A DNA stretch of 38,521 nucleotides, taken from an uncultured Chlorobiaceae bacterium. GTDB taxonomy: Bacteria > Bacteroidota > Chlorobiia > Chlorobiales > Chlorobiaceae. The notes beneath the pieces are model-generated. The model did not search any database. It was not told the origin of the DNA and worked only from the letters and a program-made list of their open reading frames with translations. The stretch is taken from contig CAIVSG010000052.1 in assembly GCA_903908555.1 (NCBI GenBank), positions 1 to 38,521 of the forward strand, read 5' to 3'. Positions 2-35,361 of this stretch are shown here, in pieces (the first letter of the stretch is position 1; every line of letters begins with the position of its first letter). A program made the translations under genes and the position numbers.

Positions 2-634
2 TCGCTTTTGTCTGCCAATTTACCGGGACGGGCAAGACCAGAGGACGCATTTTCCTTTCGCTGGAAGAATATTAGTCCAACAGATCCGCTGACTTTCAAG
101 GTTGTCACTTCTTCCCTTCTACAGGGCAAACTTCTTACTTTCTGTTACTACTCCCCCACCGCAAGTAACTGCACCATGCGCACGGTAGAACCGCACCATA
201 TGGTCAATTACATGGGTAACTGGCACCTGATAGCATTTTGTCTTTTGCGTAATGACTGGCGTGACTTTGTGCTGGGCAGAATGACACTCTGCAATGTTGA
301 GGGAACTTCCTTCAAGATCCGCGAGAAAGAGGAGTGGCTGCCGTATCTCCAGAATACCTTTGGTATCTTCCAAAACCGGAAGAGCTTTAACGTAGTCCTG
401 CGCTTTACCCCGGAGCGGTCACGTTGGATCAAGGGGGAGATGTGGCATGAGGCGCAAACTGAGATAGTTCAGGATGACGGCTCGCTGGTACGTACCATCC
501 CGGCTTCTCACGAAGCTGAAATCATGCTGGAGATCCTCAAGCATGGTTCGCATGTTGAGGTATTGGAACCGGATTGGTTGCGTAAGAAGGTAATCAAAGA
601 AATGAAGGATGCAGTGAAAAAATATCGTGTATAG
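2..634 (+). CDS. WYL-domain transcriptional regulator, 5' truncated by window edge
   Basis: Frame is open to the window start; motif-like segments typical of WYL domains (FCYYSPTASNCTMRTVEPHHMVNYMGNWHLIAFC..NDWRDFVLGRM) followed by a WCX-like C-terminal region. Confidence 0.8.
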   Translation, partial: SLLSANLPGRARPEDAFSFRWKNISPTDPLTFKVVTSSLLQGKLLTFCYYSPTASNCTMRTVEPHHMVNYMGNWHLIAFCLLRNDWRDFVLGRMTLCNVEGTSFKIREKEEWLPYLQNTFGIFQNRKSFNVVLRFTPERSRWIKGEMWHEAQTEIVQDDGSLVRTIPASHEAEIMLEILKHGSHVEVLEPDWLRKKVIKEMKDAVKKYRV

Positions 635-709: not shown

Positions 710-1483
710 ATGTCCGCAACTGAGATTGCCCCTCTGATATTGAGCTTTTTCCTTGGAATGTGTGTTTTGTACCTTACCGCATATTCAAAAGCCAGGGCCA
801 AGAACAAAGCTTTACAGGAAGCAGTTTTGAGGCTGGAAGATGATAATCAAAAGCTGTTGGCCAAGTATATAACTGAAAAAGAAAAGAACGAATTACCCCG
901 CCGCAAGCAGCGGAATATTGTACCGACTAAGGTCAAAAAGCAGTGGGACATTTCACCTTCAGAGACTATAAAACCTAGTGTTGTTGACAAAGAGAAAAGG
1001 GATTGTCAATTCGATGAGAAGAGACAGCAGTTTGTGAATTATTTTACGCTACTTGATGAGTTCCATCGGAAGAACAATGAGATTTTTACTCTTCAATTTC
1101 ATCCAATTTTGAATCGCTTCCTTTCTTCAAATCCAGTTAAGGACGAAACCGACAGAAACAGCGCAATTCTTGAATTTAACAGGGAAGTTCAGTCGTTATT
1201 CAATCAGTTGTATGAAGAACAGCAAAAAGTATATTCCGGAGCTGACAGCATCAGATCGTTCTCTTCCAGCACACTGGACGAACTGCTCGATAAACTTGAA
1301 TCAGCAATAAAGAAATCAACTGATGACGCCGCAGAAGTCTTGAAATTCATGGTCTCACCTGAGTTGTGGGCGGGGCAATCCCTGGCAGCACCGCTCCAGA
1401 AAGCAGAAAATTCCGTGCAATTGGTACTGACCTGTCGGAATGTAGTCCGCAACAGAATGAAAGTAGAGCTGGATGGAATTTGA
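710..1483 (+). CDS. Membrane-anchored coiled-coil protein of unknown function
   Basis: 257 aa; N-terminal hydrophobic segment (IAPLILSFFLGMCVLYLTAY) followed by a charged coiled-coil-like stretch (KARAKNKALQEAVLRLEDDNQKLLAKYITEKEKNE). Confidence 0.7.
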   Translation: MSATEIAPLILSFFLGMCVLYLTAYSKARAKNKALQEAVLRLEDDNQKLLAKYITEKEKNELPRRKQRNIVPTKVKKQWDISPSETIKPSVVDKEKRDCQFDEKRQQFVNYFTLLDEFHRKNNEIFTLQFHPILNRFLSSNPVKDETDRNSAILEFNREVQSLFNQLYEEQQKVYSGADSIRSFSSSTLDELLDKLESAIKKSTDDAAEVLKFMVSPELWAGQSLAAPLQKAENSVQLVLTCRNVVRNRMKVELDGI

Positions 1484-1579: not shown

Positions 1580-4500
1580 ATGACAGAAGATAATAAATCC
1601 GCTAATTCAAAGACCAAATACTTATTCAGCAATTGGCAGGATGAGTTGATTCTGGCTGCTGCTGATGCGGTTGAGTGCTGCATAACTAGCGCTTATTTGA
1701 ATTATGGCGGAGTAGAGCTGCTGTCTCGCCTATCTAAGCGCCTCGCCACCTTATCCACTTCTGCCGCAGAAAAATCCATTAAGCTTCTCATAAGTTCGCA
1801 ATTTGCACCCACCGCAGAAGATCAGACAAAAATTATCAGTAGGTTAATGGATTTGCCCAATGTCGAGATTCGCATTTGCGGACGAAATGAGTTTCTGCAC
1901 TGGAAAAACTATATATTCAAAACGAGCGAAGACATCAGAATCGTAATCGGATCTGTCAATGCAACATCGGGTGGTTTTTTCCATAATCTGGAATGTGCGT
2001 CGTTGTCAATTCACAAACTGGATGATCCCGAAGTAATACGTATGCAGGATAAATTCTCTCATTTATGGGACGATGCTGTTCCTGCTCAGGATGTCATTAA
2101 AGGAGGGATACAGAATATGGCACCGCTACCAAAATTTCAAGTCGGTGACAATGTGCGCATTATCAGCACAGGCAAAATTGGTACGATAAATAAAGTGCTT
2201 TTATCCGATGATTCAGTTGGTTATAGAGTAACTATAGACGGAAAAGTTCAGGCGTATCAAGAAAAGTATCTGGAAGCTTTCATTGACGAAGAGCAGGAAA
2301 TTATCGACAAGCTGGCTATGATGGCTTTTCGCAAAGGCGAAGATTTTCGAATATTTCAGACATGGTTTCGATTAAAGCGACCCATAGAAGGCAATATTTA
2401 TGCTTATCTCGCCAGCCGAACTGTCTTTAATCCTTACCAGTTTAAACCACTGATGAAGTTCATCTCACCTGGGTCTGAGGAAAGACTTTTCATTGCCGAT
2501 GAAGTAGGGGTTGGAAAGACCATTGAGACCGGAATTATCTTAACGGAGTTACTTGCACGTGGCCGGTTGGATCGTAGAAGTAATATTTTGATTATTGGTC
2601 CAAATGCATTAGGCCCCAAATGGGTCAAGGAAATGCGATTACGGTTCAATCTTGATTTCCGGATTCTTAATGGGCAGGATTTATCAAATATCACGAAGGC
2701 TGTTTTAGAAACTGGGTTCCTGCCTGAATATGCAAAATGGTCGGTAATAAGTCTCCAATTGATCAGAATAGATAAACATCTCGAACAGTTGGAAAAAATA
2801 AGTAGCTTACGAGAAGCACATCTTTGGAGCATGGTTGTCATCGATGAAGCTCATCATATGCGAAATAAAACGACCGACAGTAACAATGTGGGGGCAATTT
2901 TAAGCGGTTTGACCGAAATGATGCTAATGCTGTCGGCAACGCCCCTTAACCTTAAAGATGAAGACCTCTATCAGCAAATGAACATCCTGAATCCTTCCAT
3001 GTTTCCGGATTTGCAGACGTTCAATAATATGATGCAGCCTATCAAGCTAATTAATCGTTGTCGCAGATTATTGGTTCAAAATGATCCAGACAATCATCGG
3101 GAACTAATTGATACCATAGATGAATTAGAAACCACCGCATTAGGCAAAGTCGTGATTTCACATCCGAGAATCATAGCTTTGCGAAAGGCACTTCAATCAT
3201 GTGAAATTCTTCAGTATTCGGATATAGCTGATTTTGACAAGTCGCTTATAGCTCTTAGTCCCCTCGATCAATCGTTTACCAGAACATTAAAACGCGAAGC
3301 ATTTGGTCATCCCATTGTCAGGGACGCAATCAAGGTGCCGGTACTTCTCAGTCAAGCTGAAAGAGAATTCTACGATGCTGTAATCAAGTTGGTTGAAGAC
3401 GCCTATTTAGCGAAAGGCGGCGATCAAAGAGCGATTGGTTTTATCAGCAATATGCCGCAACGGATGGTCAGCAGTTGTATTCCGGCCATGCGGGAATATC
3501 TGGACTGGTGCCTGGTGAATGATCAGGAACTGGTGGACGACCTGATGAAACAACGCGAGGATGAAGCGGAAGATGACATTGATCTCAAAAAAATTCCTCT
3601 AATGCCTGAGCATAGGGACCAGTATGCCATTCTAAGAGATCAAGCTTCACTACTCGGCGAGCTTGATAGCAAATATGCTGAATTCAGCATTCTGGTAAAA
3701 AATCTCAGGGGAGAACTTGAAAACCCTCAAATAATGGTTTTTTCATTCTTTGTCAGGACGCTTAAATACTTACAAAAAAAACTGGAAATGGAGGGATACC
3801 GGGTTGGTTTGATTTGCGGCGAGGTACCGCTTGAAACCGAGGGCGATCAAAGAGGTCGTTATGAAATTATTGATGACTTTGAAAAGAAGACGATAGATAT
3901 CCTCTTATCCAGTGAAGTTGGCGGTGAAGGATTGGATTTCCAGTTCTGCCAAGCCATGATCAATTACGATCTGCCTTACAATCCTATGCGAGTAGAGCAA
4001 CGAATCGGCAGGATCGACAGGTTCGGGCAGAAGGCAGAAAAAATCTTTGTAGCTAGTATGTTTATTAGCGACACAATCGACGAAAAAATTTATGTGGCCC
4101 TTTATGACCGTATCAAATTAGTGGAAAACAGCATCGGTGCCTTAGAACCGATTCTGGGTAATGCCTTGGCAGATTTGCAGAAAGAAATTATCAACGGGAA
4201 GTTGACGGAAGCACAACTTGAAGACCGGATGAAGGCAATTGAGCTTGCTGTAGAGCAAGCAAAATTAGAAATGGAGCAGTTTGAGTCAAATCGGCGAGGT
4301 TTGATGGGCGACGAATTCTTTACAGATCCTCTACACCATTTGGATGAAAAATCAGAATTTGTCAGACCATCAGATGCAACATTTCTCACATCTCTCTGCT
4401 TAAATTCATGGGAAAAATGTGCTTACGAAAGCATTGATGAGGAGCGTGGGGCAATCACACTTTCAAAAACCGTCATTGCCGAATTGGAACAGTTCACGCG

Positions 4501-5266
4501 TCGCCCAGGGTCAGAGGGCAGTTCCAGCGAATTGCGTCCTCTTCTTGAAGGTGGGTTCCCATTGCCTATCGTTTTTAACGGAAGTCTCGCCGACCAATAT
4601 AAAGATCATCACTTTTTGTCTCCAACCGGTTCTTGGATACGGTTTTTACTTCATGACCTTGAGAGTAAAGGCAAAATTCACAAAGTATTTTATTTCGCTT
4701 CGGATCATCGGGAAATCGGTCTTGAAGAGGGCTATTATCTAGTTCCCATCTTCGAAGTACAGTTGGAAGGGTTTAGAATAGAGCTGGATTTAGCTGCTGT
4801 GCCTATATCTTTAGGAAGTAATGCTGTTGAATCGTTAGATTTCCGGAAGTTTTCTCGATTACTGGGCAAAAACATTATGGAGTGTGATGTTCCTTTCCCT
4901 CCCGATATGGCCGATGATCTTGGTCAATACATAGATAACGCAAGGGTTGCCCTTGAAAAGCAAATGGACGAAAGAGTTGTTCTCCTGCAGGCTGAAAATA
5001 TGTATCGCATTGAAACGCGAATTATATCATTGGAGCGAGGGCGAGATTCTCGAATCTCAAGATTTAAACAATTAATCTACGACCACCAAATAAGATCTGC
5101 GGCAGAGGGTAAAGAACCCAGTCAAAAGTATTTGAATATAGTCGAAGGGCAGATGGCAACAGAACAACGACGAACAGCGGAGCACATCGATAAACTGTCA
5201 TCAAAAAAGAATCTGTCTCTTACATTGTCGTTGGTAGGGGTTTGCTTAATTAGCGTCAAAGGCTAA
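1580..5266 (+). CDS. PLD-like domain plus SNF2/DEAH helicase
   Basis: 1228 aa; N-terminal PLD-like motif (HWKNYIFKTSEDIRIVIGSVNATSGGFFHNLE); helicase motifs DEVGVGKTIETGIIL (I), VVIDEAHHMRN (II), LMLSATPLNL (III), NYDLPYNPMRVEQRIGRIDRFGQ (VI). Confidence 0.88.
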   Translation: MTEDNKSANSKTKYLFSNWQDELILAAADAVECCITSAYLNYGGVELLSRLSKRLATLSTSAAEKSIKLLISSQFAPTAEDQTKIISRLMDLPNVEIRICGRNEFLHWKNYIFKTSEDIRIVIGSVNATSGGFFHNLECASLSIHKLDDPEVIRMQDKFSHLWDDAVPAQDVIKGGIQNMAPLPKFQVGDNVRIISTGKIGTINKVLLSDDSVGYRVTIDGKVQAYQEKYLEAFIDEEQEIIDKLAMMAFRKGEDFRIFQTWFRLKRPIEGNIYAYLASRTVFNPYQFKPLMKFISPGSEERLFIADEVGVGKTIETGIILTELLARGRLDRRSNILIIGPNALGPKWVKEMRLRFNLDFRILNGQDLSNITKAVLETGFLPEYAKWSVISLQLIRIDKHLEQLEKISSLREAHLWSMVVIDEAHHMRNKTTDSNNVGAILSGLTEMMLMLSATPLNLKDEDLYQQMNILNPSMFPDLQTFNNMMQPIKLINRCRRLLVQNDPDNHRELIDTIDELETTALGKVVISHPRIIALRKALQSCEILQYSDIADFDKSLIALSPLDQSFTRTLKREAFGHPIVRDAIKVPVLLSQAEREFYDAVIKLVEDAYLAKGGDQRAIGFISNMPQRMVSSCIPAMREYLDWCLVNDQELVDDLMKQREDEAEDDIDLKKIPLMPEHRDQYAILRDQASLLGELDSKYAEFSILVKNLRGELENPQIMVFSFFVRTLKYLQKKLEMEGYRVGLICGEVPLETEGDQRGRYEIIDDFEKKTIDILLSSEVGGEGLDFQFCQAMINYDLPYNPMRVEQRIGRIDRFGQKAEKIFVASMFISDTIDEKIYVALYDRIKLVENSIGALEPILGNALADLQKEIINGKLTEAQLEDRMKAIELAVEQAKLEMEQFESNRRGLMGDEFFTDPLHHLDEKSEFVRPSDATFLTSLCLNSWEKCAYESIDEERGAITLSKTVIAELEQFTRRPGSEGSSSELRPLLEGGFPLPIVFNGSLADQYKDHHFLSPTGSWIRFLLHDLESKGKIHKVFYFASDHREIGLEEGYYLVPIFEVQLEGFRIELDLAAVPISLGSNAVESLDFRKFSRLLGKNIMECDVPFPPDMADDLGQYIDNARVALEKQMDERVVLLQAENMYRIETRIISLERGRDSRISRFKQLIYDHQIRSAAEGKEPSQKYLNIVEGQMATEQRRTAEHIDKLSSKKNLSLTLSLVGVCLISVKG

Positions 5267-5284
5267 TAGAAAGAGGAGCTTCAC

Positions 5285-8200
5285 ATGGCAGAAGAAATTA
5301 ACTTCGCAGATGCGCGGCAACGACTATTAGATCAAGTAAAATCGCTTCCCCCAGGTGGGTCGGCATTAGAAACGCTTTCAATCGTCCGCGCCGACTATGA
5401 CTGGGCTATTCCTGGTTATAGAAAAGCTTTGGACATTTTGAGCGATACCATTTACCAGGATCGTAAGCATTTTTTGCTTGAATTGATTCAAAATGCCGAC
5501 GACGCAGATTATCAGACAAAAACACCGTGCCTGACCTTCACTATCAATGCCGACGATATCGAACTTCAATATAATGAAGAGGGTTTCGATGTAGATGACA
5601 TAATTGCGATTACTGATACAGGCGATTCAAAAAAGAAGGGAACAGACAGGCTAAAAAAAGGCTTCATTGGCGAAAAGGGCATTGGCTTCAAATCCGTTTT
5701 TGCCTTAGCATCGGAAGTCGAAATAGAGAGCCCGCCCTGGCATTTTCTTCTCCGAAAGGAAAAGTGCATTGTTCCAGAAGTACTGAGGAACGGAAAACTC
5801 AAAACAGGTACACGAATCAAGGTAAAGTTTACCGAACATGGCTATGCAGCTAAAATTGCAGAAGAGATCAGAAGTTTTGTAGATGGTAATACTGAATCCT
5901 TCCTGTTTTTGAACAAGCTTTCAAGGGTAATCGTACTGGATCAGCAGCAAGAACAATCCAGCAAGTGGTTATTGGAAATTGAGCCACCAGACAGAATGAG
6001 TTCTACTCTTACGATCAAAGCAGATTCAGTAACTGGCAATTCTGTCCGCGAATATCAACTATATGAACGATGTATCAAATTTCCACCAGAATTGGTGAAA
6101 AAGAGATGGGAGCGTTTAGCTTCAATTGAAGGGCCACAGACACGCCCAATAATCGTCGCAGCATTAATGGAGACGTCAGAAGATTCTTTGCCAACTGGTC
6201 AACTTTTTTGTTATTTGCCAACAAAAATAACTCTACCGGTGCCCTTGTTCCTTCAAATAGACGGTCATACAACAGCCGATAGAGAGCGACTTCTTGATCC
6301 TGCAACAAATGATTGGAATCGACATCTTCTGCAACATGTCCCTCGCTTTTTAACTGATGCCATCTTGAATTGGCGGTCTGAACCTTCAATGCAAATGGGA
6401 CTGCTGAACTATATTCCAACGAGCATCGGTAACGATCAACTCCACCCTAGTATTTTAAGCTGGCAAGAAAGCCTAAAATCTGTGGCTTGGCTTAAAACTT
6501 TTGATGATTCTATTGAAGAAGGTTGGGTTGCTCCAGATGATGCTCTTTGGGCCGATAGCTATTGGATGGAGTGGTTTGCCAATGAACCTGATTTTAGAAA
6601 AGAAGCTGAAAAACGGTTGAGTAAAAAGATTGTCCATCAAAAATGGATTGCCCATAAGAAATGGACAGGAGTTCGAGACTGTTACAAAATCAAAAAATTA
6701 AATGCCGACCAAGTTGCAGCCATATTGCGATATGTGACCTTACCGAAAGTTATGTTGACCCCCTATAACTTCCCACAACTGTATCAGCATCTTAATGAAT
6801 TAAAAGAAACACCATTGATAAAATCTGAAATAAAAAGAGCGCCTATCTTTCCTCTCGGAAAAGGGAAATGGGGCGCCTTGATTGATGATGTCGATGATCA
6901 CCGGAAGGTTTATTGGTTGGATAGCCGTTCATCGCGACAAACCGGGCTAGAAGGCCATATCGAGTATCGCATCGTTGATCCAAGATACACTTATCGGCAT
7001 GAAGCTGGGGGGAAAGCTACTGACCAAAGGCGTGAAGAATCGAGACGGATTAATGATCGAAATGAAATTGTAAGAAGTCTTTTGAAAATACTAGATGTTC
7101 GTGAACTCAACGATGATCGTATCCTTACTGAATTACAAATACCGTGGCTTGCGGCAATTACTGAAATTGAAGAGGGTGTAGCCGAAATTCAATATGATGT
7201 TTTGTCCAAAATATTTAATGCCTATCAGGCAAAACAGAACAAAGATGATAAATATATCAGTCTTTTCAAACCGCTTGCCGAAGCATTATTTCTATCTGAA
7301 AAGGGTGAAGCACATAGACTGAATAATTTGGTATTGCCGGAAACACTTCATTTCAATGATGCGGACAAGCTGTACGCAAACTCATCTGGCCACGTTATAT
7401 CTGTTCCAATAACGCTTATAACTCCGCCTCCAAGCGAGGCAAAGCATATCAATCTAGATTTAGAAAGTGAGCGGCAAGATAAATTCAGGCAAGATTGGCG
7501 GCAATTTCTTCTTCACTGCGGGATTAAGTCGAAACCAATTTTTTCCGATATAGTGCAAAACTTCAGTAATTCATATGAGTTTTCAAGAAGAGATAAATAC
7601 CTTTATGATCTGTGGCTTGTGAAAATCGATTACACATATATTCAGAAAAACGCAGTAAATATAATCCGTTGTGAATTAGATGTTTTGACAAAAAATACTA
7701 TCAAATCAGACAGTTATAATAAATTGCTGATGTCAGATATATTATATCAGTCTTGGAAAGATACGTTTGCTGAGAAAGCAAGGATTTTCCAATACAACTG
7801 TCAATCGAATGAAGGAACAATACCAAGTTGGTTAAAGGTCTTTTACAAGAAATCTACTTATTCAGATAAATGCATAGCTATATCTGATCCAAAGTGGGCT
7901 GGCTTGGAAAAAGATTTAATCCCCCTCAAGACAATTAACGGACATCCAACAACTAAACTCAAAGCTTTGAGAGTCCCCAGTTTAAAGAAAACCGAACTTC
8001 TAGTGACCCCCCGATATTTAGATCTTGTGCTTGAACAGGATAAGATCGGGGAAGGACCTGACTACGTAACAACTTTTTTGGATTCATTGGATATCAGGAA
8101 ACCTGCGATTGCTGACGTGAATGCTCTTTTTAAGCAATGCGATCAAGATCATTACAGGGATATCGCCCAAGTAGCCGTTGAATTGATAAATATTGGCGTT

Positions 8201-9745
8201 CAAAAGTTTGGGCTTCAACTCCATGATTTCAAGGAGAACCGTATTCGGTCAGTAAGTGAATTTAAACTGGGTAAAAAATCACGTCGAGGGTGTCCTCTTA
8301 TAGAAGAGCAATATGGCGAAGAAATTGGTAAAAAACTTGGGGAAATATTCTCTTTAGAAACAGAGACGGATTTCTCTTCCGACTTTCTCGGATTGTTTAA
8401 GGAATATTTCAAAACCGGGCCTGATGAAAATATATGTGAGCGAATTTATGAAATGCTAAAAGGCTGGGAGCAGTTATCGGGGCAGCAACAATTGCTGATT
8501 AAACAGGATCTTAGGAATACACTTACTGCAAATTCACATGAACAATTTGCAATTGCTTTCAATGACAAGAAATTGGCTGGTGAATTGACAGCAAATAACC
8601 TCCCTTGTATTTCAATTGATATTAACGAGACAGATCGCTATCGGTTTGAAGATTCAGCCAGTGAAATCGGTTTAACACTGATAACCGAGTTTGGTGATTT
8701 AATATGGCATGGTGAAAAAACGTTGACGGAAGAAGAATGTATAGAATTTAATGATCTTACCGGAAAATATTTTGATAGCCTTGAAAATAGGGAAGCATCA
8801 AGACTTAATCGTTGTTTGAATGTTCTGGGGAATTCGGGAGTGTGGTGCAATAAGATAAGGAGGGTAAAAATACTTCAACGGACATTTTGCGATACTGTCA
8901 AAAGGATAGAAAAATTGCCCCATTTGGATATTCAAGATGACAGCCAGTTCTTTATAGGTTTGGATGATTCTATAGAAGAAATTCTTGCGGGTCTGTTGAG
9001 CTGCTGCGAATTTACAAATTACAAAAGCGCAGTTCGGGATATTGAGGATTTAAAAGAAAACGATGAAATAGGCTACATCGCCTCTGATCAAGATGTTTCT
9101 TCTCCAGTGAAAATTCAGGATGTAGTTCAATCTGTTAAAAATGCTTTGAAAGAGCTTAGGCAACCATCAATTTCAACAAAAGGGAAGGGATGGAAACTTG
9201 GACTACCGCCAGAAGAGGAAGAGAAATTTCGCCAGAATATAATAGACAAACTGGAAGACTCTTTTATTAAAGGGCCTGATGCCTATGAAAAAAGACACAG
9301 GTCAAGATCTGAAAAAGCGGAAGTGGCCTCTTTTATCGACCCATCGGCACCTGAACCCAAAACCTTTTTAAAAACAGAGTATGATGGCAAGTGCCAGATT
9401 TGCAATGTAGAGCTGATATCAAGCCGTGGCGATAAACTGATAGAAACCTACCGTATCGTTGAAACAAGACGGAAAAATTGGTGGGCGAACAGACCTTTTA
9501 ACATTTTGTGCATGTGTCCCAATTGTCATGCTTTAGCAAAGCATGGCGGTGGAAAGGACTTTGGAAATATCTACAATCATGCACAGGAGATTCTAAATGG
9601 AGATACGATACCGATCGAAGTTCCTGAACGACAAGGTGATTGTTATGTTGTGCCGATATTGATGGCAGGGAAAGAGCACAATATGTATTTCAGTAAAGCT
9701 CATATCAACTATTTTGCAGCACTTTTTGAGCATGAAGAAAATTAG
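5285..9745 (+). CDS. Giant GHKL (sacsin/Hsp90-like) ATPase with C-terminal HNH-like domain
   Basis: 1486 aa; N-box-like HFLLELIQNADDADY and G-box-like GEKGIGFKSVFALA; C-terminal CQICNVELISSRGDKLIETYRIVETRR...NILCMCPNCHALAKHGG resembles an HNH/zinc-finger nuclease. Shine-Dalgarno-like AGAGGAG precedes the ATG, 18 bp after the helicase stop. Confidence 0.85.
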   Translation: MAEEINFADARQRLLDQVKSLPPGGSALETLSIVRADYDWAIPGYRKALDILSDTIYQDRKHFLLELIQNADDADYQTKTPCLTFTINADDIELQYNEEGFDVDDIIAITDTGDSKKKGTDRLKKGFIGEKGIGFKSVFALASEVEIESPPWHFLLRKEKCIVPEVLRNGKLKTGTRIKVKFTEHGYAAKIAEEIRSFVDGNTESFLFLNKLSRVIVLDQQQEQSSKWLLEIEPPDRMSSTLTIKADSVTGNSVREYQLYERCIKFPPELVKKRWERLASIEGPQTRPIIVAALMETSEDSLPTGQLFCYLPTKITLPVPLFLQIDGHTTADRERLLDPATNDWNRHLLQHVPRFLTDAILNWRSEPSMQMGLLNYIPTSIGNDQLHPSILSWQESLKSVAWLKTFDDSIEEGWVAPDDALWADSYWMEWFANEPDFRKEAEKRLSKKIVHQKWIAHKKWTGVRDCYKIKKLNADQVAAILRYVTLPKVMLTPYNFPQLYQHLNELKETPLIKSEIKRAPIFPLGKGKWGALIDDVDDHRKVYWLDSRSSRQTGLEGHIEYRIVDPRYTYRHEAGGKATDQRREESRRINDRNEIVRSLLKILDVRELNDDRILTELQIPWLAAITEIEEGVAEIQYDVLSKIFNAYQAKQNKDDKYISLFKPLAEALFLSEKGEAHRLNNLVLPETLHFNDADKLYANSSGHVISVPITLITPPPSEAKHINLDLESERQDKFRQDWRQFLLHCGIKSKPIFSDIVQNFSNSYEFSRRDKYLYDLWLVKIDYTYIQKNAVNIIRCELDVLTKNTIKSDSYNKLLMSDILYQSWKDTFAEKARIFQYNCQSNEGTIPSWLKVFYKKSTYSDKCIAISDPKWAGLEKDLIPLKTINGHPTTKLKALRVPSLKKTELLVTPRYLDLVLEQDKIGEGPDYVTTFLDSLDIRKPAIADVNALFKQCDQDHYRDIAQVAVELINIGVQKFGLQLHDFKENRIRSVSEFKLGKKSRRGCPLIEEQYGEEIGKKLGEIFSLETETDFSSDFLGLFKEYFKTGPDENICERIYEMLKGWEQLSGQQQLLIKQDLRNTLTANSHEQFAIAFNDKKLAGELTANNLPCISIDINETDRYRFEDSASEIGLTLITEFGDLIWHGEKTLTEEECIEFNDLTGKYFDSLENREASRLNRCLNVLGNSGVWCNKIRRVKILQRTFCDTVKRIEKLPHLDIQDDSQFFIGLDDSIEEILAGLLSCCEFTNYKSAVRDIEDLKENDEIGYIASDQDVSSPVKIQDVVQSVKNALKELRQPSISTKGKGWKLGLPPEEEEKFRQNIIDKLEDSFIKGPDAYEKRHRSRSEKAEVASFIDPSAPEPKTFLKTEYDGKCQICNVELISSRGDKLIETYRIVETRRKNWWANRPFNILCMCPNCHALAKHGGGKDFGNIYNHAQEILNGDTIPIEVPERQGDCYVVPILMAGKEHNMYFSKAHINYFAALFEHEEN

Positions 9746-9815: not shown

Positions 9816-10085
9816 ATGCAGAAAATCAAGGGCACAATCCATCACTCTGCTTCCGATCTCGTCAACTTTCTCGAATGCGAACATCTGACGGCGTTGGACT
9901 TGATCAATCTGGAAACCCCACTTACCCAGGCGGAGGACGATGAACAGGCAATCCTTTTTCAGCAGAAGGGGATTGCCCACGAAGGGGCGTATGTCGAACA
10001 TCTCAGAAGCAGTGTGTCATCTCTTATTGACATTACCGAACTCAGCAGGGATGACCTGAAGGCGGCCTGTCGGCTGCAATTTTAA
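9816..10085 (+). pseudogene. Truncated N-terminus of a TM0106-family RecB-like nuclease
   Basis: 89 aa; HHSASDLVNFLECEHLTALDLINLETPL...LFQQKGIAHEGAYVEHLRSSVSSLIDI resembles the family N-terminus; reading stops abruptly with no nuclease core. Confidence 0.6.
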
Positions 10086-11589: not shown

Positions 11590-11677
11590 GACCAGTTAAA
11601 GTGCCCTACTATCGGCAAAACCAGCTACAATATGGCCGTTCATATCGGAGCCAAGTTAAGGTATGGAGGTACAAACC

Positions 11678-12330
11678 ATGAAAAAGCATGCGATACTACT
11701 ACGGCTGAATCCTCAACACTGGCCTAAGTGGGACAGTAAATTAGCGCAAGGGTATGATGTGGATGTTTGGTTCACAACGGGTCGCCGCCGCGCCGATGAT
11801 ATATACACAGGGATACCTGTTGTCGTCTTGGGTACAGACAATCTCGGTGTCGTCGCATGTGGGGAGACATCAAGTTGCGTAGAATTTCGGTCCGATACGG
11901 ATTGGGAAGAATCACCACTGGAATTCCAATCGAGTGGCAAAATAAACTTGAACAGAGTCTGCGTCAAAATCAGACGTGTACGGCTTGCAGCAAAGGGTAT
12001 GACCGAGTTTGCCGCCAACAGTGGCCGGGCGCGGTGGGTGACAAGTCCGATCCTCGGTGAAGCTGATTGGGAGGTATTGCAGGAAGGGAGTGATGCGCGG
12101 CAAGACGATGTCCTGAAGCTGGCGCTTGAGATCAGTATTGCCGATTTGAAGAAAACGCTTGAGCAAGAAACACTTTCTGCCCTTGCCTGGCTGGTCGATG
12201 ACGGCATCCTGGATTTTAAACTGGCCATGCCGCGCACAAGCTTGATCAGGGCGAATTTCATGACAAGTTCGGCATCTTTTCCGATGCAGAGGGCAACTGG
12301 GCAGTTAAAATAATGAGTAATATCAATTTA
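11678..12330 (+). pseudogene. Frameshifted, truncated N-terminal fragment of a PLD-containing helicase with an EVE/PUA-like N-terminus
   Basis: Frame 1 reads ...LSALAWLVDDGILDFKLAMPRT; after ~12238 the continuation is in another frame: KLDQGEFHDKFGIFSDAEGNWAVKIM (PLD HxK-type motif), then it stops with no helicase motifs. Confidence 0.6.
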
Positions 12331-21256: not shown

Positions 21257-23071
21257 ATGAAAATGATTATTACGCCTACTCACTTAACAATTGGACAGTT
21301 ATTTGATCAACAGTTTATTTTTAGGGTGCCAAAGTATCAAAGATTTTATGCTTGGGATTCGGACGAAATAGATGATTTTTTAGAGGATCTAGAGCAATGC
21401 CAACTAGCAAGGATGACTGGTAATGGTCGTCACCATTTTTTTGGCGGATTGGTGACTGTAAATATACCTTTCGCAGGCTCAGCGAGGAGAAATATTGAAG
21501 TTATTGACGGACAGCAACGTTTGGCATCATTTACAATGCTTGTCGCCCAACTGAGAAAAGCGTTAATTAAATTAGAGTCTGAAGTCGACAAAGCTGCACC
21601 TGACAATCCAGCCAAATTTTTGAAAGATAAATATGACGCACTAAGAGGTAAATACTTGTTTTTTCAGGATACAATGAAGCTGCAAGTCCATGAAATTCAT
21701 AGACTTGAGCTATCTAACCCAGACAAAGCCTTTTTCAAAGTCCTCATTGAAGAAGCTGGCCCTGATGTGACAAGGGATTCACATCAGTTACTTCTTAATG
21801 CATACAATAAAATAGGTAAATATCTCCAAAACCTTGTTAACAAGCAGGCGACTGATTTGGATAAAGCCTTAGCGTTAAGTAGAATTGATGAGGTGTTGCA
21901 ATCAGACTGGACAGTTATCCATATGAGTACAGATACGAAGCAAGAAGCATATATGATGTTCCAGGTATTGAATGATAGAGGCAAGGATTTGACAGAAGGG
22001 GAGCTTCTTCGCGCTCGCACTTTAGAGATGCTTGAAGGAGTGCAATTTTCAGAAAAGCAAGAGGTAGTGGAGGATGCATGGAATCAAATGTTGAAGAAAA
22101 ACAGCCAAGTTGAAGACTCGTTGAGAGCTGTGTACGCCTCGGTTGTGGGGAAGCGACCTGGGCAGGCGACACTATTTGACCAGTTTTTAGATCAGTTCTT
22201 TCCAATGCATAAACAACCCACCCTTGATGACGAAAAGGCAACGAAACTTGTTGAACAAGTTAATAAGCTGAAATCTGACTTTGGGAAGCTTGAGAAAATT
22301 TGTAGTGGGGAGTGGCCATACCCTGTTGCCCCAGGCATAACAGCATGGCATCGTGATAGGTTGAGACTTCTTGTTTTAGAGTTAAAGCATACCAACTGTC
22401 TGCCTTTGTTGTTGGCTGCGTGCAATCTTGAGCAGAAAACCTTCGCTGAAGTTGTTCAAATATTGGAACGGTTTGTCTTTAGATACAAAATTATATGCGG
22501 GGCGCATATCAGCGCTGCACAAAATGTCTATTACAAACATGCTGTAAAAATAAGAAATAATCCGACTAATTATCAAGTCAAAGAATTAAGAGATGATTTA
22601 CAGGCCTTGCTAAATAAAAACACCACTGATAGCTTCTTTAAAAGCAGTATAAAAGAAATGGTTTACTCAGATGAAGTCAGTAACAAACCTCTGAAATATT
22701 TCTTGATGACAATTGAGCATTATTACAGGTGGTATGCAGGAGGAGCAAGTAACGCACCTAAGTGTCTTGATCCTTCAAGAGTGTTTGACTTCGCTAATAC
22801 CACTATAGAGCACGTTTATGCACAAAACACGGCAACGCCGAACGTAGCAATGGACGCCTTGGTGAACAAACTGGGAAACCTTACATTTTTAGGAACAGGA
22901 GATAACGAGGCCGTTGGTAACAAGCCGTTCGTACAGAAAAAGCCCATTTTTGCAGCGTCTGGCGTGAAATTAAACAATAAAATTGCTGAGAATGCGACTT
23001 GGGACTCAGCCACTTTAGAAGCCAGAATGGAAGAGCTATCAATGATGGCTATTAAGATTTTCAAGCCATAA
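21257..23071 (+). CDS. DUF262/DUF1524 protein (GmrSD / SspE-like)
   Basis: 604 aa; DUF262 motif IEVIDGQQRLASFTMLVAQLR and C-terminal DUF1524 HNH-like TIEHVYAQN...LVNKLGNLTFLGTGDNEAVGNKPFVQKK. Confidence 0.85.
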   Translation: MKMIITPTHLTIGQLFDQQFIFRVPKYQRFYAWDSDEIDDFLEDLEQCQLARMTGNGRHHFFGGLVTVNIPFAGSARRNIEVIDGQQRLASFTMLVAQLRKALIKLESEVDKAAPDNPAKFLKDKYDALRGKYLFFQDTMKLQVHEIHRLELSNPDKAFFKVLIEEAGPDVTRDSHQLLLNAYNKIGKYLQNLVNKQATDLDKALALSRIDEVLQSDWTVIHMSTDTKQEAYMMFQVLNDRGKDLTEGELLRARTLEMLEGVQFSEKQEVVEDAWNQMLKKNSQVEDSLRAVYASVVGKRPGQATLFDQFLDQFFPMHKQPTLDDEKATKLVEQVNKLKSDFGKLEKICSGEWPYPVAPGITAWHRDRLRLLVLELKHTNCLPLLLAACNLEQKTFAEVVQILERFVFRYKIICGAHISAAQNVYYKHAVKIRNNPTNYQVKELRDDLQALLNKNTTDSFFKSSIKEMVYSDEVSNKPLKYFLMTIEHYYRWYAGGASNAPKCLDPSRVFDFANTTIEHVYAQNTATPNVAMDALVNKLGNLTFLGTGDNEAVGNKPFVQKKPIFAASGVKLNNKIAENATWDSATLEARMEELSMMAIKIFKP

Positions 23072-30831: not shown

Positions 30832-33822
30832 ATGTCCCAAGAACAAGTTAAAAGACCTCAAGACCAACGCCCCTCCTCAGAGCTTCTCAGCCCCGCTGAG
30901 GCCGCCCATTTTCTCGGGGTGACGCCAGAGTTGTTGTTTGCCTATGCAGTTTACCCTCCGAAAAAAGCCGCTGGAGATGATTTCACCCTAAAATATTCAA
31001 GTGAAGGTGATCGTTCGGGTTTTCTCCGCGCAGACCTCGAATTCTTCGACAAGTACTTACGACAACCGTGGTCGGAGCTTGGTGCTCACAGACCGCCACT
31101 TCCTACATATGTTGGAGATTATCTGAAGGTAGAGTGCGGCGGCCAATGTGCGAGGTGCGGAAGGGGCTATAAGCTTGAGAATGCTCACATAACACCTTAC
31201 GCCGAGTCCCGTTCACATCACCATCACAATCTGATCCGTCTCTGCGTTGAGTGCCATGAAGCTTTTGAGACGAAACGGCTGATTCCATACTCTGAACTGA
31301 ATGCACTCAAACAGCGACTAATCGCTGAAATTCGTGATCGTTTACTTCCGCGTGCGAATACAACACAAAGCGAATTAGGTCGGATGCCCAATCCCGCATC
31401 ACAATTTGTTGGACGACAACATGATTTGGGAGAGTTGGTTGAAGCGCTTCGGCAGAAAAGATCCATCAGTATTGAGGGGCCTGGAGGAATTGGTAAGACT
31501 CAGCTTTTGCTGAATGCTCTTAAACTCAGCTCTGATCCACGTCCTGTTCTTTGGATAAACATTGAATCTTACAAGACAGTGAACGATCTCCTATTTGCCT
31601 TGTCGTCAGCTCTTTCAAAGCCAGGTAGTCCTGTCAATTCTTGCTCGATTGCGGACATCTTAGCCGATGAAGAAATTCGTCTTGTTTTCGATGGAGTCGA
31701 ACAGATGTTGCCTGCGGACATGGACGAAGTAGAAGACTTTTTTGGAACTCTCCTGACAATGACAACTGCACCGCAGCTCATCTTCACGTCCCAGGTCGAA
31801 CTGATCAATCTGGATCTTGAGATGCGTCTTAAGCTTGATCCTATTAGCAATGAGTCAAGTTTATTCATTCTTGAATCTGCGCTCGCTCCTGAATTGAGAC
31901 ACATCGACATTGAGGTAGAAGGACTGTGCTATCTGATTGAGTTTTGTCAGGGGCATCCGCTTACTCTACAAGTCACGGCAGGCCTCCTACAATACTTTAG
32001 GTCTGCGTCAACTGTCATGGAACGGATTCAACGAAGCGGAAGCGCCGCGATTCAGAAACCAGCGCGGCACCGGCAGAATACTCATACGTCGCTTCGCGCT
32101 TGTTTAATAGTGTCTTACCAAACGCTCACTTTAGGACAACGTAAAGTCCTCTGGATGGCATCTCAGTGCCCGGCTGGTTTTCTTTCTGATATACTGGCGG
32201 AAGTAACTGCATTCGGAATCGATGACTATATGGCGGATATTGCCGCCCTTCGTCGTTGGCACCTTGTTGATGTTAACAAAACCATGCCATTTGGAACTCG
32301 ACTCTACGTTCTTTCGCCAATTCGGGCGTTTGTCAATTTCGAGTTTCTAGAAAATGCCCCTCAAGAGATTGAGGAACTTGAGTATCTGCTTGTCATGGAC
32401 ATGACCGTCCAGGCGCGATTTCTTGATAGTAATTTTATGCAGAACGGCGATGTGGCATTGGGACTTCAACTTTTCAGTATTGAGTTGCCTAATTTCATGA
32501 ACGCCATGCAAATATTGCTGAATCGAGCGAGTGAGAGATCTCTAAACCTCGTCGCCATCATGGCCGGATGCCTTATGGTATATTGCTTTGTCAGCGGTTT
32601 CGTGCAGCTTGGTATTGAGATATTGCAGATGGGTGCTGACGCAGCCAAACGGATTGGAAATAAACATCAAGCAAGCGAGCTTTTGGCTCGTTTACTTACC
32701 CTTGCCGTACGCTCCGCAGATACCGAGATTGTCAGCGCTACGGTTGCGGAACTTGTTCGTCTAGCAGAGGACTCGTCAGACCCTATTCTAATCGCTAACG
32801 CTGCGAGCGGTCGTGGTGAACTTGCACGAATGAACAAGCAAACTGATGCCGCATTCGAAGCCTTCGCGGCCGCTGCCGTTGAATATGAAAAGGCTGCACA
32901 AGGGGCAGCCAATAAGATTGCTCGAACGGATGAGGATGAATGGCAGGCTGATTCCAATTGGGCCACACATATGTTGGCAATGACCTTGAAAAGACAGGGT
33001 GATTTGCATGAAAATGCCAAACGACCTGTTGAGGCCTTGCGCTATTATGAACAAGCACTTGGTCTTGTGCGGGAGGGGAGAGACCAGATTAACATCGGAT
33101 CTCTCCTGCACCATATGGGCAATTGTGCCGCTGATATGAATCAGAAGCAGAAGGCTTTTGACTTTTATCTAGCTGCTGCAAATAAATTCCAAACCATCCA
33201 ATTCGAAGAGTATCTGAGTAATAGTCTTGCCGAACTAGGATATCTACTTGTGGGATGGGATTCACCATCGCCGTTTGATGATCTCCTTACAGAGGAGCTG
33301 ATCGCAGACGGACTTCTTGATGTAGCACGGCAGGTGGAGCGTGTGTTTTTGCCTTTAAAATCTGAACTAAGCAGTCAATGTTCGCAAACTCTCCGCAAAG
33401 TATTCGGCATGAATATACTTGCGAGCTTTTCGTCGAAGAACCATCTCCTGGCAGATTGGGCTTGTCACCTGAGAGAGGAGGTAATACTTTCGTTCGTGGA
33501 GCAAGCAGACTGGGAAGAGCGAAGCATGGGTGACAAAATATGGATCATGTATTTAGATCTTATCTTGGCATTAGCTGGAAGTCTATCCGCAGTGGAACAA
33601 CCAAACGCAATTGGGCCGTCCCCGTCGATTCCGGAGGTTGAACACTATGCGCGACTTTGCTACAAGTATTTTGATCACGGGTGGGCTGTATTCCACCCAT
33701 TTGAGTGGCTTGCAACCTATCTTCATCGGCACCGAGGTACTTTGCCAATCCAGCCCAGTGTACTTCTATCAGCTGCAGAAGAGGCCGAAACGTTGGGACG
33801 CGAATTCTCAATAATTCTCTAA
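30832..33822 (+). CDS. HNH - STAND (NB-ARC/NACHT-like) NTPase - TPR-like protein
   Basis: 996 aa; N-terminal HNH CARCGRGYKLENAHITPYAESRSHHHHNLIRLCVECHEAFE; FVGRQHDLGELVEALRQKRSISIEGPGGIGKTQLLLNAL P-loop; C-terminal TPR-like repeats (VEALRYYEQALGLVREGRDQINIGSLLHHMGN). Confidence 0.87.
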   Translation: MSQEQVKRPQDQRPSSELLSPAEAAHFLGVTPELLFAYAVYPPKKAAGDDFTLKYSSEGDRSGFLRADLEFFDKYLRQPWSELGAHRPPLPTYVGDYLKVECGGQCARCGRGYKLENAHITPYAESRSHHHHNLIRLCVECHEAFETKRLIPYSELNALKQRLIAEIRDRLLPRANTTQSELGRMPNPASQFVGRQHDLGELVEALRQKRSISIEGPGGIGKTQLLLNALKLSSDPRPVLWINIESYKTVNDLLFALSSALSKPGSPVNSCSIADILADEEIRLVFDGVEQMLPADMDEVEDFFGTLLTMTTAPQLIFTSQVELINLDLEMRLKLDPISNESSLFILESALAPELRHIDIEVEGLCYLIEFCQGHPLTLQVTAGLLQYFRSASTVMERIQRSGSAAIQKPARHRQNTHTSLRACLIVSYQTLTLGQRKVLWMASQCPAGFLSDILAEVTAFGIDDYMADIAALRRWHLVDVNKTMPFGTRLYVLSPIRAFVNFEFLENAPQEIEELEYLLVMDMTVQARFLDSNFMQNGDVALGLQLFSIELPNFMNAMQILLNRASERSLNLVAIMAGCLMVYCFVSGFVQLGIEILQMGADAAKRIGNKHQASELLARLLTLAVRSADTEIVSATVAELVRLAEDSSDPILIANAASGRGELARMNKQTDAAFEAFAAAAVEYEKAAQGAANKIARTDEDEWQADSNWATHMLAMTLKRQGDLHENAKRPVEALRYYEQALGLVREGRDQINIGSLLHHMGNCAADMNQKQKAFDFYLAAANKFQTIQFEEYLSNSLAELGYLLVGWDSPSPFDDLLTEELIADGLLDVARQVERVFLPLKSELSSQCSQTLRKVFGMNILASFSSKNHLLADWACHLREEVILSFVEQADWEERSMGDKIWIMYLDLILALAGSLSAVEQPNAIGPSPSIPEVEHYARLCYKYFDHGWAVFHPFEWLATYLHRHRGTLPIQPSVLLSAAEEAETLGREFSIIL

Positions 33823-34413: not shown

Positions 34414-35361
34414 TTACGCCTGACTCTTCCATACTCTGCTCACCGCAGCCATCTTATTTGCCTCATTCGTCTTGGCATAAAAAGTTGCCGTAATACTGAT
34501 GTTAGAATGCCCAAGTAAATCCCTAATAGTCTCAAGATTTGTTCCGGCACTAACATGCCTCCTTGCCATTGTATGCCGTAGAATGTGCAATCCTTTTTTT
34601 TCTATCCCACCCCTTTTATATATCCCAGTTACGATTTGGTACATATTCGTCAGGTTAATGACGCCACCAGTCCGCGTAGTACAGACAGCCCAGTCGCGGC
34701 CATTCGCTTCAGTTAAGGTGTCAATCTCATCGGCGGCAATAGAATACGGCACATAGACATACCGCTCTTTACCACCTTTCCCACGGACGAGCAGAACATA
34801 AACTTCATGCTCCGTATTAAGTTCGTAATCCTTCAATTGCAGATCTAAAAGTTCATGTGCCCTTAACCCACCATACAGCATAGTTTTTATGAGAAGAGAA
34901 TTGCGATAATTGATTAAACGGTTTCGCGGGGCTTTTTTTTCTATTTCAAGATATTTTAGCAATCTCGAAACCTCATCACCGTTAAAGCCTGATTTTTCTT
35001 TAATATCTGTCTTAACTACCATTTTCTTAAACATTTTTGTATAATCCGCATTATCATCATTGTTTTCTGTAATATAGTTGAAAAATGACTTTAATACCGT
35101 GATATGCAGTTTTTTTGTGCTTGCCCCAAACTTATTGCTTATCTTCTCCATATTAGACAAATAACCATTCAAAAACATCCGGTTTACATCGGAAAGACCT
35201 AGTTCATCCTGATACTGACGGGCATATTCCACAAAGCTGTCAAGGATTCCGGTATAAATAGTAATAGTCCGCCCTGCCAGGTTCTTATTGGCAACTTCCT
35301 GCATGTACGTGGCCATCCATCTCTGTAAATCCTTTACCAGGTTATCTGCTTCGAGCTTCAT
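34414..35361 (-). CDS. Tyrosine recombinase / phage-type integrase
   Basis: 315 aa; SAM-like N-terminal domain, catalytic Arg in TMLYGGLRAHELLDLQ, HILRHTMARRHVSAGTNLETIRDLLGHSNISITATFYAK (H-x-x-R...H...Y). Confidence 0.93.
   Translation of the reverse strand: MKLEADNLVKDLQRWMATYMQEVANKNLAGRTITIYTGILDSFVEYARQYQDELGLSDVNRMFLNGYLSNMEKISNKFGASTKKLHITVLKSFFNYITENNDDNADYTKMFKKMVVKTDIKEKSGFNGDEVSRLLKYLEIEKKAPRNRLINYRNSLLIKTMLYGGLRAHELLDLQLKDYELNTEHEVYVLLVRGKGGKERYVYVPYSIAADEIDTLTEANGRDWAVCTTRTGGVINLTNMYQIVTGIYKRGGIEKKGLHILRHTMARRHVSAGTNLETIRDLLGHSNISITATFYAKTNEANKMAAVSRVWKSQA

What the first reader, a model, noticed from the sequence alone, without database searches (positions are those of the whole stretch)
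1580..9745. Candidate two-gene defence system: PLD-SNF2 helicase plus giant GHKL-ATPase-HNH protein
Two very large co-directional genes 18 bp apart combine a PLD-like nuclease fold, an SNF2 helicase, a sacsin/Hsp90-type ATPase and an HNH-like domain. Motifs are read directly. I cannot match the pair to a defence system I can name with confidence (DISARM, Druantia, Zorya and Mokosh differ in composition). It abuts a Dnd island, so guilt by association is strong.
Basis: partly seen in the sequence, partly recalled or inferred. Interest (0 to 1): 0.78.

Follow-up and report, generated by a model that had tools for sequence, protein, structure and literature searches.

The report
Helicase-ATPase pair with swappable nuclease
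Two neighbouring giant bacterial genes, a DNA-motor protein carrying a DNA-cutting domain and an Hsp90-like ATPase, form a conserved pair that recurs in distant bacteria and an archaeon, mostly beside known antiviral systems, and that I found under no published name, so it is a good but untested candidate for a new antiviral defence.

Summary
Genes 1580-5266 and 5285-9745 lie 18 bp apart on one strand. The first encodes a SauUSI-like PLD nuclease domain fused to a RapA-like SNF2 motor. The second encodes a sacsin-type GHKL ATPase with an HNH-like C-terminus. One correction: the HNH domain is homologous to McrA/TagI, but the catalytic histidine is replaced in all 11 relatives aligned, so it is probably not a nuclease.

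The pair is conserved. Wherever a sacsin protein carries this C-terminal domain and the flank was readable, the same helicase family precedes it (13 loci, several bacterial phyla and one archaeon). In 399 sampled genomes of the window's phylum both genes occur in the same four. The helicase N-terminus is interchangeable: PLD here, an active-looking HEPN RNase in five relatives, no recognised domain in seven. Neighbours are mostly defence genes: Dnd, class 1 DISARM, types I and III R-M, Septu.

It is not DISARM, ARMADA or any named system I could test; Tiamat stays a distant relative. A GHKL + SNF2 + HKD/HNH theme was predicted for MORC-like R-M operons in 2008. Best reading: an ATP-driven motor/clamp that licenses a swappable nuclease. 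No function has been tested.

The parts
1580..5266 (+). Gene A: PLD + SH3/Tudor-like + RapA-like SNF2 translocase, 1228 aa
   Evidence: 43% identical over 1049 aa to the M. hollandica pair helicase
1637..2089 (+). PLD (HKD) nuclease domain of gene A, H107xK109, GS124-N127, single motif as in SauUSI
2417..4159 (+). SNF2 motor of gene A (N and C lobes)
5285..9745 (+). Gene B: sacsin-type GHKL ATPase with C-terminal HNH-like domain, 1486 aa
   Evidence: full-length relative in Psychrobacillus, 27% over 1533 columns
5417..5734 (+). GHKL ATP-binding domain of gene B, motifs intact
9368..9742 (+). HNH-like (McrA/TagI-type) C-terminal domain plus conserved tail with H1473; catalytic His missing
9816..10085 (+). 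Remnant (first 86 residues) of a TM0106-family RecB-like nuclease gene that is intact directly after the pair in Ensifer
710..1483 (+). Upstream gene, predicted membrane segment plus coiled coil by eye; probably co-transcribed but not a conserved part of the pair
   Evidence: no homologue upstream of other pairs
2..634 (+). C-terminal part of a WYL/WCX-domain regulator, cut by the contig start; possible regulator of the locus

Best explanation
It is the two-gene core of an unnamed defence module. Gene A is a RapA/DrmD-like SNF2 translocase that moves on double-stranded DNA. Gene B is a sacsin/Hsp90-type GHKL ATPase that I propose dimerises into an ATP-gated clamp, using its dead McrA-type HNH domain as a zinc-stabilised DNA- or partner-binding foot. 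When the motor/clamp complex meets foreign DNA or an aberrant transcription or replication complex, ATP turnover licenses an effector at the helicase N-terminus: a SauUSI-type PLD DNase in this window, a HEPN RNase in relatives, or a nuclease in trans elsewhere. It sits as an add-on beside systems that often mark self DNA (Dnd, DISARM, R-M). Shown: gene anatomy, conserved pairing, effector swapping, loss of the HNH catalytic residue, defence context. Inferred: complex formation, clamp mechanism, trigger, anti-phage activity.
For: Same helicase family immediately upstream, same strand, in 13 of 13 readable loci; both genes in the same genomes of 399 sampled; correlated divergence of the two proteins (r=0.57, Mantel p=0.0009). 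Motor and GHKL catalytic motifs intact and conserved. PLD or HEPN nuclease domains at the same helicase N-terminus. Defence neighbours in nearly all loci, six of 13 modification-based. Precedent: GHKL-driven Shedu nuclease VcSduA protects against phage (PMC12137116); GHKL + SNF2 + HKD/HNH operons predicted as R-M (PMC2292703).
Against: No activity, expression or interaction data. Six relatives have no recognised nuclease at all in the pair, so the effector there is unknown. The middle of gene B (about residues 400-1290) has no recognised domain and the structure model was poor. Pairs have exchanged partners at least once, so the interface is not strictly co-evolving.
Confidence: 0.55

Rival explanations
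1. It is the phosphorothioation-dependent restriction arm of the adjacent Dnd system: the pair reads PT marks and cuts DNA lacking (or carrying) them, alongside or instead of DndFGH.
For: It lies 2.6 kb upstream of dndF on the same strand; HKD-SF2 helicases are reported near Dnd modification genes (PMC10853773); the PT-dependent enzyme ScoMcrA shows up as a weak profile hit of the HNH-like domain (5zmm, E=0.16).
Against: A complete DndFGH is already present. None of the other 12 pair loci examined showed Dnd genes; they sit by DISARM, R-M, Septu and others, although not every neighbour was scanned. No sulfur-binding domain was recognised. Degraded ORFs separate the pair from dndF.
Confidence: 0.12
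2. It is an accessory module of DISARM-like restriction, gene A being a diverged DrmD that functions with DrmA/DrmB.
For: PADLOC DrmD model PDLC02623 matches gene A full length, 409 bits. Nostoc has the pair directly before drmA-drmB, and Obscuribacterales before drmD-drmMI-drmA.
Against: NCBI DrmD cut-off not met (279 vs 610 bits). A true DrmD (1061 bits) coexists with the pair in L025, and pair helicases are only 19-21% identical to it against 23-75% to each other. Most loci, including the window, show no drmA, drmB or drmMI.
Confidence: 0.13
3. It is a housekeeping or stress module: a RapA-like RNA polymerase recycling motor with an Hsp90-like chaperone, unrelated to defence.
For: RapA is the closest solved helicase and the ATPase is Hsp90/sacsin-like.
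Against: Repeated fusion to PLD and HEPN nuclease domains, sporadic distribution (about 2% of genomes or fewer in the clades sampled), presence on plasmids and recurrent defence neighbours.
Confidence: 0.1

Closest known systems
MORC/paraMORC restriction operons (Iyer, Abhiman and Aravind 2008, PMC2292703)
   Same: GHKL ATPase genes paired with SFII helicases, one class being SWI2/SNF2, with HKD or HNH nucleases; same mechanistic idea.
   Different: Those GHKL families are MORC and paraMORC1-5; the paper does not mention sacsin. The degenerate C-terminal HNH and the PLD/HEPN swap on the SNF2 helicase are not described there.
SauUSI (type IV restriction, PLD + helicase; PDB 7clg)
   Same: N-terminal PLD with the same HxK/GSxN motif fused to a helicase.
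   Different: Single-protein enzyme with no GHKL partner known to me; sequence similarity to gene A was detected through the PLD region only.
DISARM DrmD
   Same: SNF2 helicase of similar length; full-length match to one PADLOC DrmD model.
   Different: Below the NCBI cut-off; a true DrmD coexists with the pair; no DISARM core genes in the window.
Tiamat (PADLOC TmtA)
   Same: Large protein with a sacsin/GHKL N-terminus; best PADLOC match of gene B (171 bits over residues 46-855). That TmtA stands for Tiamat is my own reading of the name.
   Different: As I recall it, Tiamat is a single-gene system; gene B is always paired with the helicase and has its own C-terminal domain outside the match.
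VcSduA (GHKL-Shedu, PMC12137116)
   Same: GHKL ATPase controlling a nuclease in anti-phage defence.
   Different: Nuclease is PD-(D/E)xK in the same protein; no helicase.
ARMADA (PMC12458937)
   Same: Contains a RapA/BrxHII-like helicase (ArmA).
   Different: The tested type II system also has a PglX-like methylase, a YprA helicase and a GajB-like protein; none is part of this pair.

Membership tests
DISARM (class 1) | SNF2 helicase scores above the NCBIfam DrmD cut-off | tested here: not met
   NF038317 278.9 bits against 610; NF038318 149.8 against 950
DISARM (class 1) | drmMI, drmA, drmB present alongside | tested here: not met
   No such hits among the window genes scanned; DNA beyond the contig start is unknown
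PLD-helicase anti-phage protein (NF042964 / PADLOC PLD_Helicase) | score above curated cut-off | tested here: not met
   172 bits against 1100, match in the helicase part
Tiamat (TmtA) | full-length match to a TmtA model | tested here: inconclusive
   171 bits over residues 46-855 of 1486, C-terminus outside; no published cut-off used
Tiamat (TmtA) | single gene sufficient, no helicase partner | tested here: not met
   helicase always adjacent in the 13 readable loci
MORC/paraMORC R-M operons | GHKL protein encoded next to a SWI2/SNF2 helicase with HKD or HNH domains nearby | tested here: met
MORC/paraMORC R-M operons | GHKL domain belongs to MORC or paraMORC1-5 | not tested
   No models for these families searched separately; Pfam and NCBIfam call it sacsin-type
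Active HNH endonuclease (McrA/TagI type) | HNH fold with homology to McrA/TagI | tested here: met
Active HNH endonuclease (McrA/TagI type) | catalytic histidine present | tested here: not met
   R in window; R/Y/E/N in the ten relatives
PLD (HKD) nuclease | HxK and GSxN(x)E active-site residues | tested here: met
   H107, K109, N127, E138 aligned with SauUSI
Anti-phage defence system | protection on expression | not testable with these tools
   needs bench work

The most novel reading that the evidence does not exclude
A widespread, unnamed prokaryotic immune family built on one constant chassis (RapA-like translocase plus sacsin-type ATPase with an inactivated McrA-type HNH), on which the effector is interchangeable between DNA-cutting PLD and RNA-cutting HEPN, plugged in beside self-marking systems such as Dnd, DISARM and type I/III R-M.
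Probability: 0.45. Interest if true: 0.8.

Novelty: new variant of a known kind. Interest (0 to 1): 0.6.

Why it matters
If confirmed, it would give sacsin/Hsp90-type ATPases a defined role in bacterial immunity. It would also show one sensing motor switching between DNase and RNase outputs, and offer a tractable two-gene test of the 2008 proposal that GHKL ATPases and SNF2 motors cooperate in restriction.

Tried and rejected
The first genome-contig search with the whole of gene B found nothing; a C-terminal alignment was needed. The three viral-contig hits are short HNH proteins with the catalytic His in place, not members of the pair family. Phylum hits to the C-terminal profile between E=1e-8 and 1e-14 lie in ORFs of 120-510 aa and were treated as ordinary HNH proteins (only L041 was read), so only E<1e-15 hits were counted. 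I considered DrmD membership because of a 409-bit full-length PADLOC match, and rejected it because L025 carries both a true DrmD and the pair. I considered the upstream gene 710-1483 as a third component: no homologue precedes other pairs. I tested whether the sacsin C-terminus tracks the helicase better than its N-terminus: suggestive for M. hollandica, but the difference reverses when that one locus is dropped and L049 contradicts it, so it is not claimed. The full-length structure model of a relative was too poor (pLDDT 51) to read domains from. Promoter and terminator scans were no better than shuffles. GrwAB, found while searching papers, is unrelated (DUF262).

Full report
OBSERVATION. 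Gene A has an N-terminal PLD region, just below Pfam's cut-off (26.2 against 27 bits) but matched by phmmer to the PLD half of SauUSI (7clg, E=1e-5) with HxK, GSxN and a following E aligned. It is followed by an SNF2 motor whose closest solved relatives are RapA. Gene B has a sacsin-type GHKL domain above the NCBI cut-off with motif residues E66, N70, D73, G129, G132-K136 and R333 conserved in at least 12 of 14 homologues.

THE HNH IS REAL BUT PROBABLY DEAD. A profile of 11 family C-termini hits the HNH domain of EcoKMcrA (E=4.6e-8) and TagI (E=0.0076). A 197-residue AlphaFold model (pLDDT 70) has TagI, Cap5 HNH and EcoKMcrA as its top Foldseek hits, though at weak E-values of 0.015-0.16. The first CxxC is kept and the second varies between CxxC, CxxH and similar, but where McrA has VHH the family has YR, VY, NY, VE, PE, IE or HN: the catalytic second His is absent in all 11. 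I therefore predict a structural or DNA/partner-binding role; this is inference.

THE PAIR IS CONSERVED. Sacsin proteins with this C-terminal domain were located by protein and profile searches in plasmids and genomes. In every locus with readable upstream DNA the same helicase family precedes it on the same strand: the window, a Methanomethylovorans hollandica plasmid (L002), Rhizobium bangladeshense (L015), Ensifer adhaerens (L016), Psychrobacillus (L023), Obscuribacterales (L025), Nostoc (L026), two genomes of the window's genus (L030, L033), G213 (L036, ATPase split over two contigs with L046), G419 (L047), G403 (L049) and G992 (L052): 13 of 13. The Rhizobium and Ensifer loci were fetched after adjacency was suspected, so they are less independent. 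L024, L027, L028, L029 and L051 end at contig edges and could not be judged. Reciprocally, in 399 sampled genomes of the phylum the domain (E<1e-30) and the family helicase occur in the same genomes, three of 398 apart from the window's own (chance about 1e-7). Sacsin-like proteins without the domain (L031, L032, L034, L037-L040) have no such helicase beside them; L035 has a more distant SNF2. Helicase and ATPase divergence correlate (r=0.57, Mantel p=0.0009), but imperfectly: the L049 helicase is L030-like while its ATPase is L026-like, and an L030-type C-terminal remnant lies just after the L026-type ATPase of L028. Partners have therefore been exchanged within the family.

THE EFFECTOR IS INTERCHANGEABLE. 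The helicase N-terminus is PLD in the window; HEPN_Swt1 in L030, L033 and L036 (above Pfam cut-off) and, by sequence similarity and an RNRWAH motif, in L049 and L052. No such domain was recognised in M. hollandica, Psychrobacillus, Obscuribacterales, Nostoc, Rhizobium, Ensifer or G419. In Psychrobacillus a separate PLD gene (L023:10765-12102, minus strand), 30% identical to the window's PLD, lies next to the pair. Ensifer has an intact TM0106 RecB-like nuclease right after the pair; the window keeps only its first 86 residues at 9816-10085.

CONTEXT. Neighbours are known or candidate defence genes: dndFGH and dndBCDEA in the window; type III R-M in M. hollandica; drmD-drmMI-drmA in L025 and drmA-drmB in L026; type I R-M genes in L049 and L036; Septu in L030; PDC-S68 in L033 and L047; Mrr-like genes in L033 and L036; ABC-three-component genes in L015. 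Six of 13 sit beside a system that is, or in its full form is, based on DNA modification.

MECHANISM. RapA-like SNF2 proteins translocate on dsDNA and GHKL-S5 proteins form ATP-gated dimers (established knowledge of RapA, Hsp90, MutL). Iyer et al. 2008 proposed DNA looping by GHKL ATPases with SFII helicases in R-M operons (PMC2292703), and VcSduA shows a GHKL domain in a working phage-defence nuclease (PMC12137116). I infer that A and B form a DNA-engaged complex whose ATP turnover licenses the attached nuclease. The trigger is unknown; the modification-rich neighbourhood suggests, but does not show, a role for self/non-self marks.

KNOWN OR NEW. DISARM and PLD-helicase memberships fail on tested cut-offs, ARMADA on composition; Tiamat is a distant match only. 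Ten searches of an open-access paper library found no paper describing this pair. Subscription papers and most preprints are not held, PADLOC is the 2023 version, and DefenseFinder was not available, so a recent name cannot be excluded. I rate it a new variant of a known kind.

Noticed in passing
9816-10085: Truncated start of a TM0106-family RecB-like nuclease gene, 70 bp after gene B; the intact gene follows the pair in Ensifer (L016:13009-16398). Degraded-looking ORFs fill 10.1-12.3 kb.
   Followed up: partly
11663-12313: 216-aa ORF before dndF matching a stretch of PbeA models (PT-linked restriction of archaea) over about 85 residues only; possibly a remnant.
   Followed up: no
21257-23071: DUF262/GmrSD-like 'Orf5' gene between dndH and dndB, related to SspE and HEC-06; possibly a further PT-linked nuclease in the same island.
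   Followed up: no
30832-33822: 996-aa protein with an N-terminal HNH, a STAND/NB-ARC-type NTPase and TPRs, with no PADLOC match: a possible separate STAND-type defence gene.
   Followed up: no
34414-35361: Tyrosine integrase on the minus strand beside the Dnd island, suggesting the island is mobile; no tRNA was found in the window.
   Followed up: no
L026:10612-16422: Nostoc drmA-drmB directly after the pair, with no drmD or drmMI seen in the stretch; it may be a hybrid DISARM-like locus.
   Followed up: partly
L028:3032-3331: Remnant of an L030-type sacsin C-terminus directly after an intact L026-type sacsin gene: a scar of gene replacement within the family.
   Followed up: partly
L015:9339-9869 and L016:6142-6696: Small sigma-factor-like helical gene overlapping the start of the helicase in both Rhizobiaceae pairs (53% identical); function unknown.
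   Followed up: no
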